A stretch of DNA of 49,754 nt from positions 1 to 49,754 of the forward strand of contig JAMPKV010000038.1 of NCBI GenBank assembly GCA_039962225.1. Direction: 5' to 3'. The translations under genes were made by a program, and so were the position numbers. This DNA is from Microcoleus sp. AS-A8. GTDB lineage: Bacteria > Cyanobacteriota > Cyanobacteriia > Cyanobacteriales > Coleofasciculaceae. The notes below the pieces were generated by a model. That model saw only the letters and a program-made list of their open reading frames with translations, had not been told where the DNA came from and ran no database searches. This document shows, in pieces, positions 6,755 through 19,103 of this stretch (the stretch's first letter is position 1; each line of letters starts with the position of its first letter).

Positions 6755-7996
6755 GTGGATTGTCGCGACGTGCGGGGAGATGAGGATGTTGTGGAGGATT
6801 TGGGGAAGCGGATGCGGCGTTCTGAGCGAGTGACGTGTCAGCTATACTCCGGTCATCGAGGCGCGGGAAAATCCACCGAACTGCTCAGGTTAAAGCAATA
6901 TCTGGAACAGCAGAAGTTCTATGTGGTCTATTTTGCCGCCGATGAAGAGGATATTCAATCTGAGGATGCTCAATATACCGATATTCTTTTAGCCTGTACC
7001 CGCCATCTGCTGGATGAATTAAACAAAAGTGCAAATCCAGCACCATTGTTGAATTGGGTGAAAAAACGCTGCCAAGAGTTGAAAGATTTGGCACTGATGG
7101 AGATATCGTTTGAGGGGATGAGTGTCGAGGGACAAATCGCCCAGTTTGCCAAGTTGACTGCGAATTTAAGAGCAGAACCCACGATGCGGCAACAGATTCG
7201 AGAGAAGGTGAATCCTCATACGGTTAGCTTGATTGATGTTTTAAATGAGTTTCTCAATGAGGCGAAGCAGCATTTGCCCAATGGTTGTAATCAACTGGCG
7301 GTGATTGTAGATAACTTAGATCGGATTGTGCCAGTGTTTCAGGAGACTGGACGCACGAACCATGAGGAGATTTTTCTCGATCGCAGCGAACAACTCAAAG
7401 CTTTAGATTGCCATCTGATTTACACGGTTCCTATCTCAATGGTGTACTCGAACCGTGCTACGGATATCCGAGATATCTATAGCGATACTCAAGTTTTGCC
7501 CATGATTATGGTGCGGACTCCGGATGGGACAGTCTACCAACCGGGACTTGAGAAAATCAAAGAAATTATTGGTAGGCGAGTCAGGCAATTTGCGCCTAAG
7601 TTATCTCTGGATACAGAAATCTTTGATAGTCGGGATACCTTAGAGCAACTGTGTCTGATGAGTGGGGGTCATGTGCGGAATCTGCTATTGTTGACGCAAG
7701 ATGCGATCGCACGCACGGACGAGTTACCGATTTCCGCCAAAGCAGTACGCACAGCGATTACTAGAGCGAGGGATACTTATCGCCGCACGGTTGGGAACGA
7801 GCAATGGTGTTTATTAGCTGAAATCTCTCGCTCTAAGCGGATTGTTAATGATGATGACTATCGGAGTTTATTATTTAATCGCTGTCTTTTAGAATATCGT
7901 TATTGGAATCAAGAGGGTGAGTTGGATCGCTGGTGTGACGTTCACCCGCTCATTCGAGGGATTCAGGAATTTAAGGAAGCGGTAGCTCAACTTTAG
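6755..7996 (+). CDS. P-loop ATPase (STAND/AAA-like), 5' end probably frameshifted
   Basis: This 413-residue predicted NTPase has a Walker A GHRGAGKST (residues about 33-41), a Walker B-like QLAVIVDNLDR near 185, and a C-terminal region with a winged-helix character. The only clean start in frame is a GTG at 6755, but coding similarity runs further upstream in the same frame (LYNAFDPCRPLPAGDPNYVD). It would connect to ATG 6664 if one unit of the AACCTCT tandem duplication at 6691-6704 were removed. The gene may therefore be N-terminally truncated, use a poor start, or be switched by slippage. It is followed by the TPR gene at 8350. Related ATPase-TPR pairs are common in large cyanobacterial genomes; a link to signalling or conflict is inference. 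Confidence 0.75.
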   Translation: MDCRDVRGDEDVVEDLGKRMRRSERVTCQLYSGHRGAGKSTELLRLKQYLEQQKFYVVYFAADEEDIQSEDAQYTDILLACTRHLLDELNKSANPAPLLNWVKKRCQELKDLALMEISFEGMSVEGQIAQFAKLTANLRAEPTMRQQIREKVNPHTVSLIDVLNEFLNEAKQHLPNGCNQLAVIVDNLDRIVPVFQETGRTNHEEIFLDRSEQLKALDCHLIYTVPISMVYSNRATDIRDIYSDTQVLPMIMVRTPDGTVYQPGLEKIKEIIGRRVRQFAPKLSLDTEIFDSRDTLEQLCLMSGGHVRNLLLLTQDAIARTDELPISAKAVRTAITRARDTYRRTVGNEQWCLLAEISRSKRIVNDDDYRSLLFNRCLLEYRYWNQEGELDRWCDVHPLIRGIQEFKEAVAQL

Positions 7997-8349
7997 CTCG
8001 TTAATATTGACTTACCCGCTTAACGCCAGGGATTCAAATCCCTGGCTAATAGCATATCAGTCCTCTTCAGAGGACTGATATGCTAACTGTACAAGGGTTT
8101 TACTCAGATCTTGCAGCAAGTCGCTTTGACCCCACCCCAACCCTCCCCTTATTAAGGGGAGGGAGCTAAGTTCCCCCCTTACCAACCGGAGCTTTAGTGA
8201 GGAGGGCTAGGGGGGTGATGCAAGATGTGAGTTTTAGTCCATTGAAATGGACTTGAGCTATGAGCCGTGGATTTAAATCCACGGCGGACTTCCTTCCTTA
8301 CAGGAATTGGCGGTCAGAAATTCAAGGAATTTGTATAACCTCAGAAGCA
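7997..8349. repeat. Cluster of palindromic repeats between ATPase and TPR genes
   Basis: Five dyads follow one another. 8025-8046 has half-site GCCAGGGATT. 8050-8085 has a 17-bp arm TAGCATATCAGTCCTCT and a 2-nt loop. 8141-8163 is CCCTCCCCTTA, T, TAAGGGGAGGG. 8236-8253 has the arm AGTCCATT. 8264-8285 is a perfect 22-bp palindrome with half-site GCCGTGGATTT. The hairpin at 8050-8085 could also end transcription. The last palindrome overlaps an ATG at 8260 that opens the TPR frame, so that ATG is probably not the native start. Confidence 0.75.
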
Positions 8350-10305
8350 ATGGATTGGGACGAGGAAATCCCTGATGACCCAGAAGAAGAATATCTTGCC
8401 TTAGTCTGCGCTCTCAAGCGGAAAAAAGGCTTTGGTTTGTTTTTCGTTCGCTGCTCCCAGAAGGAAGGGAAGCAGATAATCGAGAGAATGAAGCAGGATA
8501 TTCCTCAGAAAACCATTGAGGTTTTACGATTCATTGAGCCGATTGATAATTTATACAATCGAGTTACCAAGCTCGCCAATAGAGATAAGATAGATATTCT
8601 CTTTATCCAAGGCATTGAATACTCGTTGTATGAGTACGAACTTAAGACATTTGGAGAAATTACTGAACTTTACTATAATAATTTTACCAGCGTTCCTCGG
8701 ATTTTAAGTCATTTAAATCAACAGCGAGAACGGTTTCGAGACGATTTTGATATTTGCTTTGTTTTCCTGTTGTGTCCATTTGCGCTTAAGTATTTTATTC
8801 AACGCGCTCCAGATTTTTTTGATTGGAAATCTGGGGTTTTTGATTTTCCGACTCATCCAGAGATTGTAAAGGAAGAAACAAAACGCCTCCTGCTGGAAGG
8901 AGATTATGAGGAGTACCTAAAACTGACTCCTCAAGAACGGGTTAAAAAAATTATAGAAATTCAAGGTTTGCTGGCAGAAGACTATCAGACCTACAGTTAT
9001 AGAGTTTATTTACTGGGTGAACTAGGTAATTTGTTGGTTACAGCGAAAGAATATGAAGGTGCGATCGCATCTTACGACCAAGCCCTCAAAATTCAACCCG
9101 ACGACCACCAAGCCTGGATTATCCGGGGCATTGTGCTTTTTGATTTAGGACGACTAGAAGAGGCGATAACTTCTTGCGACCAAGCCCTCAAAATTCAACC
9201 CGACGACCACCAAGCCTGGATTATCCGGGGCATGGCGCTGAGTAATTTAGGTCGCTTAGAAGAGGTGATCGCTTCTTACGACCAAGCCCTCAAAATCAAA
9301 CCCGACGACCACCAAGCATGGAACAACCGGGGCTATGCGCTGGGGAAATTAGGACGCTTAGAAGAAGCAATAGCATCTTACGACCAAGCCCTCAAATTTA
9401 AACCCGACTACCACCAAGTCTGGAACAACCGGGGCTATGCGCTGATTAATTTAGGACGCTTAGAAGAAGCAATAGTATCTTACGACCAAGCCCTCAAATT
9501 TAAACCTGACTACCACGAAGTCTGGAACCTTCGGGGCATGGTGCTGAGTAATTTAGGACGACTAGAAGAAGCAATAGCATCTTACGACCAAGCCCTCAAA
9601 TTTAAACCCGACTACCACTATGCCTGGAACTTCCGGGGGATTGCGCTGAAGAATTTAGGACGATTAGAAGAAGCAATAGCATCTTACAACCAAGCCCTCA
9701 AAATCAAACCCGATTATCACGAAGCCTGGTACAACCGGGGCATTGTGCTGGGGAATTTAGGACGATTAAAAGAGGCGATAGCTTCATTCGACCAAGCCCT
9801 CAAAATCAAACCCGATTATCACGAAGCCTGGAACAACCGAGGCTATGCGCTGGGGAATTTAGGACGACTAGAAGAGGCGATAGCGTCATTCGACCAAGCC
9901 CTCAAAATCAAACCCGATTACCACGAAGTCTGGAACCTTCGGGGCATGGTGCTGAGTAAATTAGGATGCTTAGAAGAGGCGATAGCGTCATTCGACCAAG
10001 CCCTCAAATTTAAACCCGACTACCACTATGCCTGGAACTTCCGGGGGATTGCGCTGAAGAATTTAGGACGATTAGAAGAAGCGATCGCCTCTTACGACCA
10101 AGCCTTAAAAATTAAACCCGACTCCCCCAACGCTTTCTATAACAAAGCTTGCAGTTATGCTTTGCAAGGCAATATCGAGCAGGCAATTGAAAACCTGCAA
10201 CAGGCAATTAATCTAAGTCCTGATGAATATCGACAGATGGCAAAAACTGACTCGGATTTTGACAGCATTCGAGAAGACGAACGCTTTCAAATGTTAATTC
10301 AATAA
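8350..10305 (+). CDS. TPR protein with N-terminal degenerate NTPase-like domain
   Basis: The protein is 651 residues if started at ATG 8350 (MDWDEEIPDD). An upstream in-frame ATG at 8260 lies on a palindromic repeat and is less likely. Residues about 1-220 resemble an NTPase core without a true P-loop (GLFFVRCSQKEGKQI, then DILFIQG and DICFVFLLCPF), perhaps an inactive STAND-type domain. From about residue 235, eleven consecutive 34-residue tetratricopeptide repeats follow (AIASYDQALKIKPDYHEAW type). A partly matching twelfth is at the C-terminus. TPRs bind partner proteins. The repeats are nearly identical at DNA level, and units 9-10 copy units 5-6 at a 408-bp offset, indicating recent expansion. 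It follows the ATPase at 6755, and the two probably form a pair. Confidence 0.8.
   Translation: MDWDEEIPDDPEEEYLALVCALKRKKGFGLFFVRCSQKEGKQIIERMKQDIPQKTIEVLRFIEPIDNLYNRVTKLANRDKIDILFIQGIEYSLYEYELKTFGEITELYYNNFTSVPRILSHLNQQRERFRDDFDICFVFLLCPFALKYFIQRAPDFFDWKSGVFDFPTHPEIVKEETKRLLLEGDYEEYLKLTPQERVKKIIEIQGLLAEDYQTYSYRVYLLGELGNLLVTAKEYEGAIASYDQALKIQPDDHQAWIIRGIVLFDLGRLEEAITSCDQALKIQPDDHQAWIIRGMALSNLGRLEEVIASYDQALKIKPDDHQAWNNRGYALGKLGRLEEAIASYDQALKFKPDYHQVWNNRGYALINLGRLEEAIVSYDQALKFKPDYHEVWNLRGMVLSNLGRLEEAIASYDQALKFKPDYHYAWNFRGIALKNLGRLEEAIASYNQALKIKPDYHEAWYNRGIVLGNLGRLKEAIASFDQALKIKPDYHEAWNNRGYALGNLGRLEEAIASFDQALKIKPDYHEVWNLRGMVLSKLGCLEEAIASFDQALKFKPDYHYAWNFRGIALKNLGRLEEAIASYDQALKIKPDSPNAFYNKACSYALQGNIEQAIENLQQAINLSPDEYRQMAKTDSDFDSIREDERFQMLIQ
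9052..10132 (+). repeat. 102-bp tandem repeats coding for TPRs
   Basis: Eleven in-frame 102-bp units share strings such as GACCAAGCCCTCAAA and GGACGACTAGAAGA. Segments around 9628 and 10036 are the same, 408 bp (four units) apart. Confidence 0.85.
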
Positions 10306-14210: not shown

Positions 14211-14513
14211 ATGATGGAGACGATTCCATTTTTAGTGACCCTGCCTGAAGAAGATGAGCAGGAGGTAAAAGGCATTTTTTCCGGTGACACAGAAATAGTG
14301 GTGCGGGATTTGCCGACAGAGCAACTTCGAGAAAACTTGAAGAAGGTCTGCCAGGGAGTTACTACTATACTCAAAGATGTCAAGCAGGTCGGAGGCTTTC
14401 AGCTCAAGCAAGTCACAATTCAGGTTGAAGTGACTGCTGAAGGCGGTATAGAGCTTGTTGGGACAGCTAAGCTGGGAGGCAAAGGGGCAATCACGCTAAC
14501 GTTCTCGGAGTAA
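14211..14513 (+). CDS. Small Pepco/Trypco-like accessory protein of a conflict system
   Basis: This 100-residue protein is compact and beta-rich at its C-terminus (QLKQVTIQVEVTAEGGIEL then VGTAKLGGKGAITLTF). This resembles the small peptidase-co-occurring domains (Pepco/Trypco) described beside caspase- and trypsin-like proteases in bacterial conflict systems. The assignment rests on pattern and context. Two adjacent ATGs (14211, 14214) follow AAAGGA. Its stop is 3 bp before the caspase-Hsp90 gene start, so the pair is probably translationally coupled and works together, for example as a regulator, sensor or substrate of the protease. Confidence 0.65.
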   Translation: MMETIPFLVTLPEEDEQEVKGIFSGDTEIVVRDLPTEQLRENLKKVCQGVTTILKDVKQVGGFQLKQVTIQVEVTAEGGIELVGTAKLGGKGAITLTFSE

Positions 14514-14516
14514 TCG

Positions 14517-17500
14517 ATGAAAAAACGGCGGGCGCTGCTGATTGGGGTTCCTGAGTATCAAAATAAATCCATCCCAGATTTACCAGTTGTACGGCGAGAT
14601 GTGGCAAGCCTTGAACTGGTTTTGAAAAGATCTGGATTTGATGTGCGCTCACAAGGTATTGAGGACAAGTTTGATAGTGGGCGCAGCATGATCTGGGATA
14701 GTCTCCTACAGATATGCCAGAACGCAAAATCTGGAGAGATATTGCTCCTTTATTTTTCAGGGCATGGAGTGCATTACCAAGGTAAGGATTACCTTGTCCC
14801 CTCGGATGCAATTTTGGAACGACCTGGAGCATTCGCTCAATTTCTTGTTCCTTGCGATCTTTTGGATGACGTAGTTGACAAGTCAAAGGCGGAAACTATT
14901 GTCTTTTTCATTGATGCTTGTCGTGAGGGTCTTGATTTAGGAGTGAAGGGTCTTTCTCTAGTGAAGTGGGCTGATAGCCTGCAAAAGAAAGCTATGCAGC
15001 GTAATTTCCTCCGGGTATTTTCTTGCGGTCGCGGTCAGTTTAGCCGCTTCACAAAGGGTGAACAAGGATTCAGTCTCTTTACCCAGGCTTTAGTAGATAT
15101 TCTCGATCCAGAGCATCCAGCCCATGAGCTTGGCGACATCTTGAGAGCAGCTCAAGCCAGACTTGATGAGTTGGTGGAGGAACATGACATAAAGCACCGA
15201 CAGCAAATTTGTTACTTAACCGAGGATAGGGTAGACGCTTTACTGGCACAGGACATTCTCTCGCGAGTTATCCTCAAGGACACGCCTCTGGTAATAGCTG
15301 CAAGTCAGGCTGAAGAGCGTTGGCGTGTAGAAGTCTTGCACTCGCCTCTGTGGAGTGAGGAAAATACTGACACCGATGGCGCAATCGCTGAGCTTAAACA
15401 GCAGGTATATAGAATAGTCACTGCTTGTTGGCAACAATGGAGCCTTGCCCATGAAAAGTTTCAGCAAGATCCCTGGCGGGATGAATTATACCCAATCCGA
15501 ATTTTAAAGGCTCTTGAGTTGCTGGTGCTTCAGTCCGATCCACCTACTGAGCTTACTCCAGTTGAAAAAGCCCTAATTATTGCTGCTCCATTTGTTTGTG
15601 AAGCAGTACTGGCTAATGCCTTAGTGCAGGCGGTTGAATTCAAACTCGACCCCTTGTCTTTGGATGAAAATAATCCAGCAATTGGTTTCCAAATTGCTTT
15701 AGGGAAAGTGCATCGACTCCACCAACGATTAGTTACGAAAGCTCAGCAATTTACAAAACAGGGATGTGTGACAGAATGTGAGGCAGTGAAATCATGGTTG
15801 CTATATCGTTGCTTGCTTCGTACACCTGAAATCTGGCAGTTCCAGTTAGCAGGAGGTTATCTTTCTGTCAATTTTGCCAACGCGTTGGAAGAGGCAATTA
15901 GAAGTAAGTTTGGTTTTGGGACGACAACTTTGTCACCACCGATTCCCCTAGAAATTCTAACGGATTTGGGGCGCTCTCTTCTTGCAGAACCTGAAAGTAT
16001 TGACCGTTATGCTGCTAAGCAGCCGGTTGGATTTCTTAAAACACAGGTTGTCCGAGTAAAGATGCTTGGCTACCTCTTGAAACTAGCTGGATTGCTAGCT
16101 ATAGATGTGCGAACACTCTCAGATGTGTTAGTGGATAATATAGGTCTTGCTGACCGCCTGACAGATGAAGCAAATCGACTAACTCCTGAAGAGGTATGCA
16201 CTAAGATATCTGAATCTCTCTGGCTTAGAGCTGGAGCTGGCTATACACTTAGTGTGACCTGCCGTCATCCAGCACTAGATTTTGCACTACGCGAACATGT
16301 CGAGTACGCTAGCACAGTTCTTAACCATGTTCTTCGGAATAGGGATGAGAAACCTCACGCTTTGGAAGCGCTTTCGGGTTTACCATTACGCCTAACCACT
16401 GATGGTATTAAGCCAGAGAAAGGGAAAAATAGAGCTCCACTTTATAAAACACCCCATGTATATTTTCAACTAGCTCACGATGAAATTCGCGATTTGCTCA
16501 TGGGAGAACAGCTCTATGGCGATCCTGCCCTAGCTATCCGAGAACTATATCAAAATGCACTAGATGCCTGCCGCTATCGAGAAGCGCGGCATAAATATCT
16601 AAAACAGAAGTCCCTTGATGAATATCTGGATCATTCATGGGAGGGACATATCATCTTCACTCAGGGAATTGATGATGATGGGCGCTCCTATATTGAGTGC
16701 AAGGACAATGGAATTGGTATGGGATCTCAGCAGTTAACTCAGTGCTTCGCCCGTGCGGGTCGTCGCTTCTCCGATTTGCCGGAATTCATTAAAGAACAGG
16801 CTGAATGGCTGCAATGTTACCCACCTATCCGGCTGTACCCAAACAGTCAGTTTGGAATTGGTGTGTTCAGCTACTTTATGCTAGCTGAGGAGTTACTTGT
16901 GGAGACTTGTCAGCTTGAAAGCGATGGTCGGCCTGGAAAACGCTTGCGCGTCCACGTACCTGGTAGTAGTGGTCTTTTCCGAATACAAGAGTCGGGGTTG
17001 GGAACTGATTCAGGGACGCGGGTACGTCTTTACTTGAACAAAACTCACCTTAAAGGTAAAGGTCAGCTAATCTCTTGTATTGAAATACTGCGGAAGCTGT
17101 TGTGGGTAGCGGAGTTCCGAACTGAAGTCCAGCAGTTTGGCAGGTTAGAAGTATGGGAACCTGGACAACTGCGGCATCCTGATTATCCTCAGAGTTCCTG
17201 TCTCAAGGCAGCAGACACTGATATCTGGTGGGTGCCAGAGAAGAGTGAGTATTGGTATAAAGATAGTGGATGTATTTTGTCAGATGGACTTTGGACTGAG
17301 GAGTCTCAGCCCGGTTTTGTAGCAAACTTGCGCGGGAAACGCCGTCCCAAACTAACGGTGGATCGCAAAAATATTGTGCAGTGGGATCGTACCTGGGTCA
17401 GTGAGGCACTAAAGCAGAATTCAGAACCTTTACTAAACTGGCCTCATTTGGATCTTGAATGGCTGTGGAAGCTGGCACAAAAACATCCGCAAGTTGCTGA

Positions 17501-19103
17501 AAATGTAGTAGCAATGCTTTCGCAAAGGAAAGCAAATGTGAAATTAGGAATATGGGGTTACAGTGATGAAGTGCCAATTTCAGAGTTGGGATGCTTTGAA
17601 CATGATCGAAATCTACACTTCTTTAGACATGGATTAGGATTAGAGTTCCGGTTCCTCACCTACTACTTTCCTTGGTGGATACTTACTTATCGGGTCATTG
17701 CATGGGAACGTTGCGGATTAGTAAAGGTTTCAACGACATTCTTGGAAAGTCTACCCGCATCAATGAAGTTAGAATTGTGTCCGGTACCGCGAGCTGGTGA
17801 TGGTATTGCTCTCTCCCAAGATCTACATGGCTCGCTAATTCATTCTCTTCAGGATAATGTCCCGCCTGCTCATATAGTTTTGGCTACCGAACGACTAAAT
17901 GAACCTATAGCCTCAACAGTCAAACGACTTCAGCGATTTGTACCTTTGGGGTTGAAAATGCCGAGGGTAGTTCTAGAATCTCTTAATGAGAAAAGTGCCG
18001 ACGAAGAAGATTTGATTGCACTGTCAAGGAGAATAACGGAAAAGGATAAGTATCCTTGGATTGAGCAGCGAATATCTGCTGCCCATATTGTTCTAACGTC
18101 TGCACGGCTAGGCGAATCTGTGCCTGACATCATTAGACGACTCCGGAAATTTTTACCTTTAGGGTTAGAAGTAACACAGGTTAATTTGGAGACATTGGAC
18201 AAAGTTCCTGTAAATCAGGAAGATATCATTGCTCTTTCAAAAGAACTAGACGGAGAAGAAGCTTTATCTAGTGATCGGATATCTCCCGTTCAGATAGTTT
18301 TTGCTGCTAATCGGCTGAATGAGCCTATAGTTGAAACTCTTAAACGGCTAGAAAAATTTATACCCTTAGGTCTAGAATTACCTAAAGTACATTTAGAAAC
18401 ATTAGGTAACTTTCAGCCGAATCAGAAGGATTTGATTTCTCTTTCGGAAAAAATGGATGGAAAAAGGGCTTGGACTGAAGACCGGATACCTGTCGCTCAT
18501 ATAGTTCGATTGGCTGGGCAGCTAAATGAGCCTGTAGCTGATACTCTACAACGACTTCAGAAATTTTTACCCTTAGGACTAAAGTTGCCACAGGTAAATC
18601 TGAACTTTTTAGAAAATTTCACGATAGACCGTGAGGATGTAATCATCTTCTCAGAAGAGTTAGGCTCAGAGTATTCAAAGATCAGAAGTACATGGCTTGA
18701 AGATCGGCTGACTCCTGCCCACTTAATCACAACTGCTGTCAAGTTAAATAAAACTGTAGTTAATTCCTTGGAACGCTTTAAACGATTTGTACCTTTGGGG
18801 TTAGAGGTTCCAGAGATAGACTTACAGTCTCTAGAAGCTCTCATTTCAGATAAGAAGAACTTGATTTCACTCTCGAAAAACCTAAGTGAAAAGCCAGATA
18901 GTCCAAATGACATACTACAAGGTACCATTCACCCTACTCGCATAATTCTGGCTGCATTGGCTTTGGATGAGCCAGTAACAGAAACGCTAGAGCGATTTCG
19001 TCGTTTTGCACCAGTACTAGAGCTGACTTTACCCGAAGGAGAGCCAGAATCTTGGAAATTTTGTAATGACGAGAGTGAGCGCAGTGTTAACGGGGAACAG
19101 TAA
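14517..19103 (+). CDS. Giant caspase / Hsp90-type ATPase / repeat fusion protein
   Basis: The 1528-residue protein has three parts. Residues 1-240 form a C14 caspase-like protease, with catalytic His83 in SGHG and Cys135 in DACRE. About 240-630 is helical, perhaps the inactive-HD-like region of related proteins. About 655-950 is an Hsp90/GHKL ATPase, with Glu676 and Asn680 of ELYQNALDA, DNGIGM at 730-735 and FGIGVF at 779-784. From about 1112 to 1515 run five full repeats and one partial repeat of 68-74 residues. Each has an AHIV...RLNEP...TLxRLxxFxPLGLE...LSxxL pattern, perhaps small winged-helix units. Caspase-Hsp90 architectures are predicted conflict or programmed-death effectors in multicellular bacteria. 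Here the ATPase would sense or switch and the caspase would execute; that is inference. It is coupled to the small gene at 14211. Confidence 0.85.
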   Translation: MKKRRALLIGVPEYQNKSIPDLPVVRRDVASLELVLKRSGFDVRSQGIEDKFDSGRSMIWDSLLQICQNAKSGEILLLYFSGHGVHYQGKDYLVPSDAILERPGAFAQFLVPCDLLDDVVDKSKAETIVFFIDACREGLDLGVKGLSLVKWADSLQKKAMQRNFLRVFSCGRGQFSRFTKGEQGFSLFTQALVDILDPEHPAHELGDILRAAQARLDELVEEHDIKHRQQICYLTEDRVDALLAQDILSRVILKDTPLVIAASQAEERWRVEVLHSPLWSEENTDTDGAIAELKQQVYRIVTACWQQWSLAHEKFQQDPWRDELYPIRILKALELLVLQSDPPTELTPVEKALIIAAPFVCEAVLANALVQAVEFKLDPLSLDENNPAIGFQIALGKVHRLHQRLVTKAQQFTKQGCVTECEAVKSWLLYRCLLRTPEIWQFQLAGGYLSVNFANALEEAIRSKFGFGTTTLSPPIPLEILTDLGRSLLAEPESIDRYAAKQPVGFLKTQVVRVKMLGYLLKLAGLLAIDVRTLSDVLVDNIGLADRLTDEANRLTPEEVCTKISESLWLRAGAGYTLSVTCRHPALDFALREHVEYASTVLNHVLRNRDEKPHALEALSGLPLRLTTDGIKPEKGKNRAPLYKTPHVYFQLAHDEIRDLLMGEQLYGDPALAIRELYQNALDACRYREARHKYLKQKSLDEYLDHSWEGHIIFTQGIDDDGRSYIECKDNGIGMGSQQLTQCFARAGRRFSDLPEFIKEQAEWLQCYPPIRLYPNSQFGIGVFSYFMLAEELLVETCQLESDGRPGKRLRVHVPGSSGLFRIQESGLGTDSGTRVRLYLNKTHLKGKGQLISCIEILRKLLWVAEFRTEVQQFGRLEVWEPGQLRHPDYPQSSCLKAADTDIWWVPEKSEYWYKDSGCILSDGLWTEESQPGFVANLRGKRRPKLTVDRKNIVQWDRTWVSEALKQNSEPLLNWPHLDLEWLWKLAQKHPQVAENVVAMLSQRKANVKLGIWGYSDEVPISELGCFEHDRNLHFFRHGLGLEFRFLTYYFPWWILTYRVIAWERCGLVKVSTTFLESLPASMKLELCPVPRAGDGIALSQDLHGSLIHSLQDNVPPAHIVLATERLNEPIASTVKRLQRFVPLGLKMPRVVLESLNEKSADEEDLIALSRRITEKDKYPWIEQRISAAHIVLTSARLGESVPDIIRRLRKFLPLGLEVTQVNLETLDKVPVNQEDIIALSKELDGEEALSSDRISPVQIVFAANRLNEPIVETLKRLEKFIPLGLELPKVHLETLGNFQPNQKDLISLSEKMDGKRAWTEDRIPVAHIVRLAGQLNEPVADTLQRLQKFLPLGLKLPQVNLNFLENFTIDREDVIIFSEELGSEYSKIRSTWLEDRLTPAHLITTAVKLNKTVVNSLERFKRFVPLGLEVPEIDLQSLEALISDKKNLISLSKNLSEKPDSPNDILQGTIHPTRIILAALALDEPVTETLERFRRFAPVLELTLPEGEPESWKFCNDESERSVNGEQ
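17850..19060 (+). repeat. Protein repeat array in the caspase-Hsp90 gene
   Basis: Repeat units begin near 17850, 18070, 18277, 18482, 18706 and 18924; the sixth is truncated. DNA divergence between units is considerable, so the array is old compared with the TPR array at 9052. Confidence 0.75.

What the first reader, a model, noticed from the sequence alone, without database searches (positions are those of the whole stretch)
14211..19103. Coupled Pepco-like protein and caspase / Hsp90-ATPase / repeat fusion
A 100-residue beta-rich protein is followed, 3 bp later, by a 1528-residue protein joining a caspase-like protease (His83/Cys135), a GHKL ATPase with intact N, G1 and G2 boxes, and six 68-74-residue C-terminal repeats. 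Seen directly: the motifs, repeats and coupling. Established: caspase plus Hsp90-type ATPase proteins and small peptidase-associated domains occur in predicted NTP-dependent conflict or cell-death systems of multicellular bacteria. Inference: here the ATPase gates the caspase, and the repeats sense or bind a trigger. This repeat arrangement and gene pairing may not have been characterised.
Basis: partly seen in the sequence, partly recalled or inferred. Interest (0 to 1): 0.8.

Follow-up and report, generated by a model that had tools for sequence, protein, structure and literature searches.

The report
Hsp90-type switch fused to bacterial caspase
A cyanobacterial gene pair encodes a small partner protein and a large protein in which a caspase-like protease is joined to an Hsp90-type molecular switch and a string of sensor-like repeats; it belongs to a widespread family that databases already name but for which I found no laboratory test, and it probably works as a built-in alarm that kills or damages the cell when triggered.

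Summary

It is not a one-off. A pattern scan of a collection of 84,980 species genomes found 315 relatives; the best 80 were returned and analysed. iHD and Hsp90 share one ORF in 78 of 80. The front end is exchanged: intact caspase; TIR plus a dead caspase (7 Frankiaceae, one clade); or nothing recognised. Pepco lies beside 35 of 54 genes with an intact caspase and 1 of 24 without, but this rests on only 3-5 independent contrasts. Elsewhere in the class Pepco adjoins another caspase or CHAT gene in 17 of 19 sampled loci.

Best reading: an Hsp90-type clamp gates a caspase in a conflict or cell-death system; Pepco belongs to the caspase. The domains are in Pfam, so this is a new member of a known, apparently untested kind.

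The parts
14211..14513 (+). Pepco small protein (100 aa; true start probably 14214)
   Evidence: Pfam PF24393 E=7.5e-19; 4 of 5 other copies begin at the second Met
14507..14510 (+). GGAG, possible ribosome-binding site of the large gene inside the end of the small gene
   Evidence: read directly; inference
14517..19103 (+). 1528-aa caspase / iHD-CE / Hsp90 N-M / wHTH-repeat protein
14523..15203 (+). caspase domain (residues 3-229)
   Evidence: Peptidase_C14 E=2.5e-22; weak PDB match to paracaspase MALT1 E=0.0027
14763..14765 (+). His83 codon, catalytic His of the caspase (SGHG)
   Evidence: invariant in 5 of 5 aligned copies; H and C together in 53 of 60 caspase domains of relatives
14919..14921 (+). 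Cys135 codon, catalytic Cys of the caspase (DACR)
15321..16415 (+). iHD-CE domain (residues 269-633)
   Evidence: Pfam PF24401 E=2.6e-58; overlapping HD-CE PF24391 E=4.3e-24; no PDB sequence match
16473..17534 (+). Hsp90 N-terminal plus middle domain (residues about 653-1006)
16542..16556 (+). N box, E676 to N680
   Evidence: aligned to the REL..NA.DA motif of HtpG; invariant 50 of 50, partly by the way the rows were fetched
17364..17366 (+). R950 in LTVDRK, at about the place of the Hsp90 middle-domain catalytic Arg
   Evidence: invariant 50 of 50; position inferred from ends of structural alignments and recalled Hsp90 residue numbers
17772..19100 (+). six wHTH-HSP90_Na-associated repeats (residues about 1086-1528)
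   Evidence: Pfam PF24410, six stretches; period 69-71 aa; net charge -15

Best explanation
A two-gene, self-contained conflict (immune or cell-death) unit. Shown by sequence and model: one polypeptide carries a caspase with an intact His-Cys dyad, an iHD-CE domain, an Hsp90-type N plus middle-domain ATPase, and a C-terminal repeat array. The iHD-Hsp90 core is constant across relatives while the N-terminal effector is exchanged (caspase, TIR with a dead caspase, or none recognised). Inferred: the repeats bind a trigger; the Hsp90 module, using ATP-driven clamp closure, acts as the switch in the place that STAND/NACHT NTPases hold in other such proteins; closure or oligomerisation releases or pairs the caspase, which then cleaves cellular proteins. 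Pepco is a co-factor of the caspase (inhibitor, substrate or adaptor), not of the Hsp90 core, because elsewhere it accompanies quite different caspases and is nearly always missing where this family has no active caspase.
For: Domains. Hsp90 N-M fold; nucleotide-site residues and R950 invariant 50 of 50 (the N and G1 boxes partly by selection of the rows). Constant core: iHD and Hsp90 on one ORF in 78 of 80 relatives; of the other two, one is split over two ORFs and one is cut at a contig end. Effector exchange: caspase dyad intact in 53 of 60 caspase domains; the 7 without it are exactly the 7 core proteins with a TIR domain (local profile; Pfam TIR_2 in the 2 scanned), one clade with support 100/100. 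Pepco with intact caspase 35 of 54, otherwise 1 of 24. General Pepco survey: 19 Pepco loci of the class, caspase adjacent in 16 (2 of them fragments, 1 on the 5' side), CHAT in 1, neither in 2, with GUN4 or FGE-sulfatase C-termini. EACC1, the constant partner of a described caspase conflict system (PMC7159879, passages), replaces Pepco beside 6 relatives (3 by Pfam; 3 more by a local profile built from those). Precedent: VcSduA, a GHKL-ATPase plus nuclease defence protein, loses activity on E27A (PMC12137116, passages).
Against: I found no experiment on any member. 19 of 54 genes with an intact caspase have no Pepco, including the Azospirillum copy, so Pepco is not obligatory; one relative (L101) has Pepco and core but no caspase. 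Phylogeny-aware test of the Pepco-caspase link: 3-5 independent contrasts, median p 0.5. Two clades (Dactylosporangium, Lentzea) have the core with no recognised effector (local profile; Pfam on one member of each; tree), so the core can act without a fused caspase. No defence family among the Pfam hits of the 10 nearby window proteins scanned, nor conserved neighbours by eye. iHD-CE and Pepco have no solved relatives by sequence, so how they act is guesswork.
Confidence: 0.5

Rival explanations
1. A regulated-proteolysis machine of normal physiology or stress: the Hsp90-like domain and repeats recognise damaged or client proteins and present them to the caspase; no role in immunity.
For: Hsp90 N and M domains bind clients in true Hsp90s (established, recalled); repeats keep their identity position by position and the array is acidic, as a peptide-binding array could be.
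Against: Effectors are exchanged, including TIR with a dead caspase; Pepco and EACC1 partners are shared with other caspase genes, EACC1 with a predicted conflict system; distribution is patchy: iHD-CE reaches its cut-off in 6 of 388 genomes of the class, the window's own included.
Confidence: 0.2
2. The repeats are DNA- or RNA-binding winged helices and the protein is a nucleic-acid sensor, or a transcription regulator with protease output.
For: Pfam names the repeats wHTH; wHTH domains commonly bind DNA (established, recalled).
Against: The array is acidic in the window (net -15, pI 5.2) and C-terminal tails have pI under 7 in 75 of 75 relatives measured. Two of six single repeats are basic, so sequence-specific binding is not excluded. 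The wHTH fold itself was not tested by a structure search.
Confidence: 0.2
3. Pepco is an antitoxin-like inhibitor and the pair is a toxin-antitoxin-like addiction unit rather than a sensor of invaders.
For: Small 5' gene, 3-bp spacing, tied to caspase genes.
Against: 19 of 54 genes with an intact caspase lack Pepco; the long core and repeat array would be unnecessary; a plasmid-stability role was not tested.
Confidence: 0.15

Closest known systems
EACC1-caspase two-gene conflict system (System 4 of Kaur et al. 2020, PMC7159879; passages read)
   Same: Two adjacent genes, small constant 5' partner, caspase at the N-terminus of the 3' gene, exchangeable C-terminus; 6 relatives of this very core have EACC1 as the partner.
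   Different: Partner here is Pepco, not EACC1; the words Hsp90, Pepco and GHKL do not occur in the held text of that paper.
Pepco-caspase pairs of cyanobacteria (GUN4 or FGE-sulfatase C-termini)
   Same: Pepco next to a caspase gene in 16 of 19 sampled loci, on its 5' side in 15.
   Different: Their C-termini are GUN4 or FGE-sulfatase where recognised; here iHD-Hsp90-wHTH repeats.
Pfam families iHD-CE (PF24401), HD-CE (PF24391), wHTH-HSP90_Na-assoc (PF24410)
   Same: All matched well above cut-off.
   Different: Models only; no function tested in any paper I found.
Hsp90 / HtpG / TRAP1 / GRP94
   Same: N plus middle-domain fold and nucleotide-site residues.
   Different: About 13-19% identity over the N-M rows; fused to caspase, iHD and repeats; an Hsp90 C-terminal dimerisation domain was not identified (residues past 1250 were not modelled).
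VcSduA, Shedu with GHKL ATPase (PMC12137116; passages)
   Same: GHKL ATPase joined to a destructive enzyme; its authors hypothesise that the ATPase controls the nuclease; ATPase mutant inactive.
   Different: Nuclease instead of caspase; homologues had been annotated paraMORC3, not Hsp90; no partner gene or repeats in the passages read.
Phage rIIA proteins (PMC7824862, passages)
   Same: 16 of the 50 listed viral structural matches are named rIIA; GHKL ATPase at the N-terminus.
   Different: Described as poorly understood counter-defence with a variable C-terminus; no caspase; fold similarity only.

Membership tests
EACC1-caspase two-gene system | 5' gene encodes EACC1 | tested here: not met
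   Pfam gives Pepco and a sub-threshold Trypco1, no EACC1
EACC1-caspase two-gene system | 3' gene has N-terminal caspase and variable C-terminus | tested here: met
Pepco-caspase pairs | Pepco domain over curated cut-off | tested here: met
   68.7 bits against cut-off 27
Pepco-caspase pairs | adjacent caspase-fold peptidase gene | tested here: met
   conserved in close relatives
iHD-CE / wHTH-HSP90_Na-assoc protein family (Pfam) | both domains over cut-off in one protein with an Hsp90-type ATPase between | tested here: met
Hsp90 chaperone family | GHKL N-domain with N, G1, G2 boxes | tested here: met
Hsp90 chaperone family | middle domain with catalytic Arg | tested here: inconclusive
   fold aligned to about residue 1006; R950 invariant 50 of 50; residue-level equivalence only inferred
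Hsp90 chaperone family | C-terminal dimerisation domain | tested here: inconclusive
   not covered by the rows; the model ends at residue 1250
STAND/NACHT NTPase receptors | P-loop STAND NTPase domain | tested here: not met
   no P-loop NTPase family among the Pfam hits of the 1528-aa protein at E up to 1
Active caspase-like peptidase | His-Cys dyad | tested here: met
   His83/Cys135
Anti-phage defence system | protection against phage | not testable with these tools
   needs an experiment; PADLOC matches only its generic caspase model, E=2.5e-12

The most novel reading that the evidence does not exclude
A class of bacterial immune receptors in which an Hsp90 N-M clamp, not a STAND NTPase, is the signal switch: a constant iHD-Hsp90 core reads a position-specific array of wHTH-like repeats and fires whatever effector is plugged in front (caspase with Pepco or EACC1, or TIR with a dead caspase kept as a scaffold). 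Phage rIIA proteins, which share the GHKL fold and are suspected of counter-defence, could be decoys of such receptors.
Probability: 0.35. Interest if true: 0.85.

Novelty: new member of a known kind. Interest (0 to 1): 0.5.

Why it matters
If right, bacteria use an Hsp90-type ATPase as the on-off switch of a caspase in one polypeptide, and the same switch runs other death effectors. In animals and plants Hsp90 is a separate chaperone needed for NLR immune receptors (established, recalled); a fused bacterial version would be a simple, testable system for how an Hsp90 clamp can gate a death protease, and would give Pepco, a domain found in 136 of 388 genomes of this class, a role to test.

Tried and rejected
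Tried with little result. Pepco structure from six sequences: pLDDT 45.6, not used for a fold search. PDB sequence searches for Pepco, iHD and repeats: nothing significant. The listed fold-search rows were Hsp90 proteins, so iHD and the repeats were effectively not tested by structure. First genome-contig scan with the whole protein: no relative; the second, with the ATPase alignment, worked. NCBIfam and PADLOC gave only sub-cut-off or generic hits. Phages: 2 of 50,697 records matched the ATPase region, both htpG of Acinetobacter phage MD-2021a; viral contigs and metagenomes were not searched. A repeat alignment that included two distant relatives was out of register for those two rows, so one search is weak. 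My first motif patterns undercounted intact caspases, on an alignment, replaces them.

Considered and rejected: EACC1-system membership (partner is Pepco); STAND receptor (no P-loop NTPase); a decayed gene (catalytic residues intact, no stops); recent tandem duplication of the repeats (24 of 30 repeats match best the same position in another protein); a defence island (nearest genes: iPGM, a matrixin-like protein and a ZnuABC-type transporter; PADLOC was not run on them).

Results against and limits: the Pepco-caspase link is not significant once phylogeny is allowed for; 2 of 19 Pepco loci have no caspase nearby; those 19 were mostly the strongest of well over 100 matches, not a random draw. 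The 80 relatives were fetched by two patterns that hold the N and G1 motifs, so conservation of those motifs among them is partly built in. Rows dropped before counts: 3 relatives cut at the 5' end and 2 unsure ones (L119, L150) left out of the 78-row table, whose labels I entered. Paper searches: some listings were capped (20 of 289, 20 of 9,439).
Full report
Check of the observation. The two ORFs are at 14211-14513 and 14517-19103 on the + strand, separated by three bases, with a GGAG at 14507-14510 that could serve the second gene. Pfam identifies the small protein as Pepco (E=7.5e-19). The large one carries Peptidase_C14 at 3-229, iHD-CE at 269-633 with the related HD-CE model over part of it, and six wHTH-HSP90_Na-assoc stretches. 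NCBIfam sees Hsp90/HtpG at about 658-843, far below its cut-offs. PADLOC sees only its generic caspase model.

Relatives in the same class. Of 388 genomes of the class, the own one included, 136 have Pepco at E <= 0.001, 8 have iHD-CE (6 over cut-off) and 10 have the repeat family (9 over cut-off). Four full-length relatives at 47-53% identity, and a fifth interrupted by an IS4-type transposase gene, all have the Pepco gene exactly three bases upstream. Their other neighbours look different in each genome (unannotated ORF lists, compared by eye). Among the window and the four intact copies the Hsp90 part is the most conserved (72% mean identity), then caspase 57, iHD 54, repeats 47 and the 954-1110 stretch 40; Pepco 71. 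Twenty-four of 30 repeats match best the repeat at the same position in another protein, so the array looks old and position-specific.

Structure. An AlphaFold2 model of residues 260-1250 from 50 sequences has mean pLDDT 88.5. Residues about 653-1006 align to Hsp90, TRAP1 and GRP94; in the 39 top rows Z runs from 22.6 to 19.3 over 280-314 residues at rmsd 3.9-5.1 A, covering the N-terminal and the middle domain. Sequence profiles agree for the N-domain (HtpG, E=8.8e-12; alignment). E676, N680, D730, G732, G734, G780, G782, T834 and R950 are invariant in 50 of 50 rows. All rows but the window's were fetched by patterns on the N box or the G1 box, so only G780, G782, T834 and R950 are free of that selection. 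E676 aligns to the Glu of the HtpG 'REL..NA.DA' motif. R950, in 'LTVDRK', falls near the position of the Hsp90 middle-domain catalytic Arg if one counts back from the ends of the structural alignments; that residue's role and number are recalled, so this is an inference. Among viral predicted structures, the first two rows are an Hsp83 and an HtpG-domain protein, and 16 of the 50 listed rows are named rIIA; PMC7824862 (passages) describes rIIA orthologues as poorly understood counter-defence systems with a GHKL ATPase.

The family at large. A scan of a collection of 84,980 species genomes with the ATPase alignment gave 315 relatives, of which the best 80 were returned: Cyanobacteriota, many Actinomycetota, single Acidobacteriota, Planctomycetota and Pseudomonadota, and two metagenome bins labelled Methanosarcinales and Nealsonbacteria whose binning I did not check. 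With local profiles, iHD and Hsp90 lie on one ORF in 78 of 80; of the other two, one is split over two ORFs and one is cut at a contig end. Six proteins scanned with Pfam had 0, 7, 8, 8, 10 and 8 repeat stretches. Azospirillum brasilense has a plasmid copy with caspase, iHD, ATPase and one recognised repeat, no Pepco by the local profile, and an AAA_5 gene overlapping its end. A Streptomyces collinus plasmid has the ATPase alone next to a sigma-factor-like gene.

Effector exchange. Sixty caspase domains in the 80 loci were aligned: 53 keep His and Cys; the other 7 are exactly the 7 core proteins with an N-terminal TIR domain (local profile; Pfam TIR_2 in the 2 scanned), one fully supported Frankiaceae clade. 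Two clades, Dactylosporangium and Lentzea, have the core with no recognised effector (local profile; Pfam on one member of each; tree). Pepco is beside 35 of 80 relatives (34 by local profile, 1 more by Pfam). In a 78-row table (80 relatives plus window and two plasmid copies, less 3 cut and 2 unsure) Pepco goes with an intact caspase in 35 of 54 and without one in 1 of 24 (Fisher p=2.5e-7). The rows are related: only 3-5 independent contrasts exist and the sign test has median p 0.5, so within this family the link is suggestive. EACC1 is the partner in 6 (Pfam for 3; local profile for 3 more).

Pepco outside the family. I sampled 19 Pepco loci, 18 from other genomes of the class and the second Pepco of the window's own genome, mostly among the strongest matches. 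A caspase gene is adjacent in 16 (two are fragments; in one it lies on the 5' side), a CHAT-GUN4 gene in 1 (the window's own genome), neither in 2. Among the 14 downstream proteins scanned, 12 have Peptidase_C14, 1 CHAT, 7 GUN4 and 5 FGE-sulfatase. Pepco therefore behaves as a constant partner of caspase-fold peptidases. Sub-threshold Trypco1 matches (E 0.001-0.07) in the window's Pepco and in 4 of the 6 Pepco proteins scanned hint at kinship with the trypsin-co-occurring domain named in PMC7159879 (passages).

Mechanism. The constant part is iHD plus Hsp90 with, in 5 of the 6 relatives scanned, an array of repeats; the exchanged part is the effector; Pepco or EACC1 follows the caspase. The simplest model is a receptor in which the repeats detect a trigger, the Hsp90 clamp closes with ATP and the effector is activated, with Pepco tuning the caspase. 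The sensing, gating and killing steps are inference. A tested parallel for a GHKL ATPase being needed in such a protein is VcSduA (PMC12137116, passages). The array is acidic (net -15; tails under pI 7 in 75 of 75 relatives measured), which speaks for protein rather than unspecific DNA binding.

What is known. Ten paper searches in the open-licence library showed no paper on this architecture; some listings were capped and subscription journals are mostly missing. Passages of PMC7159879 and PMC8195603 describe sister systems (EACC1, EACC2, Trypco) and their held texts do not contain Hsp90 or Pepco. An orthocaspase survey, PMC8283722 (passages), lists HATPase_c in 4 orthocaspases, beside HisKA in 4, so probably histidine-kinase fusions. 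Passages of PMC3501461, PMC7517822, PMC10907252 and PMC11090510 did not describe it. Pfam already holds the domains, one named for its Hsp90 association, so somebody has recognised the association; I file this as a new member of a known, apparently untested kind.

Scores. Interest 0.5: the architecture is striking and widespread, but the domains are already catalogued and the function is unproven.

Noticed in passing
L078:7748-9115 (same record as L105; Leptolyngbya sp. PCC 7375): An IS4-type transposase gene interrupts the iHD region of this copy, leaving an intact Pepco and caspase upstream.
   Followed up: partly
L101:6475-10981: Pepco followed by iHD-Hsp90 with no caspase and with the repeats on a different ORF: looks like a decayed copy.
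   Followed up: no
L142 and L172: Two core proteins in one Streptomyces locus; in L142 both carry a caspase.
   Followed up: no
L124, L126, L128, L129, L131, L151, L175: Frankiaceae proteins of about 2150-2290 aa: TIR, then a caspase domain without the His-Cys dyad, then iHD-Hsp90.
   Followed up: partly
L075:10566-12929: AAA_5 ATPase gene overlapping the end of the Azospirillum core gene by 4 nt.
   Followed up: no
L079:5974-7721: Second Pepco of the window's own genome, next to a CHAT-GUN4 gene.
   Followed up: partly
window 6755-10305: An AAA_16-like ATPase gene (below cut-off) next to a TPR protein with about 12 repeats; possible separate signalling pair.
   Followed up: no
viral structure library, model mf1abc6112baf: 16 of the 50 listed viral matches of the Hsp90 core are named rIIA.
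   Followed up: partly
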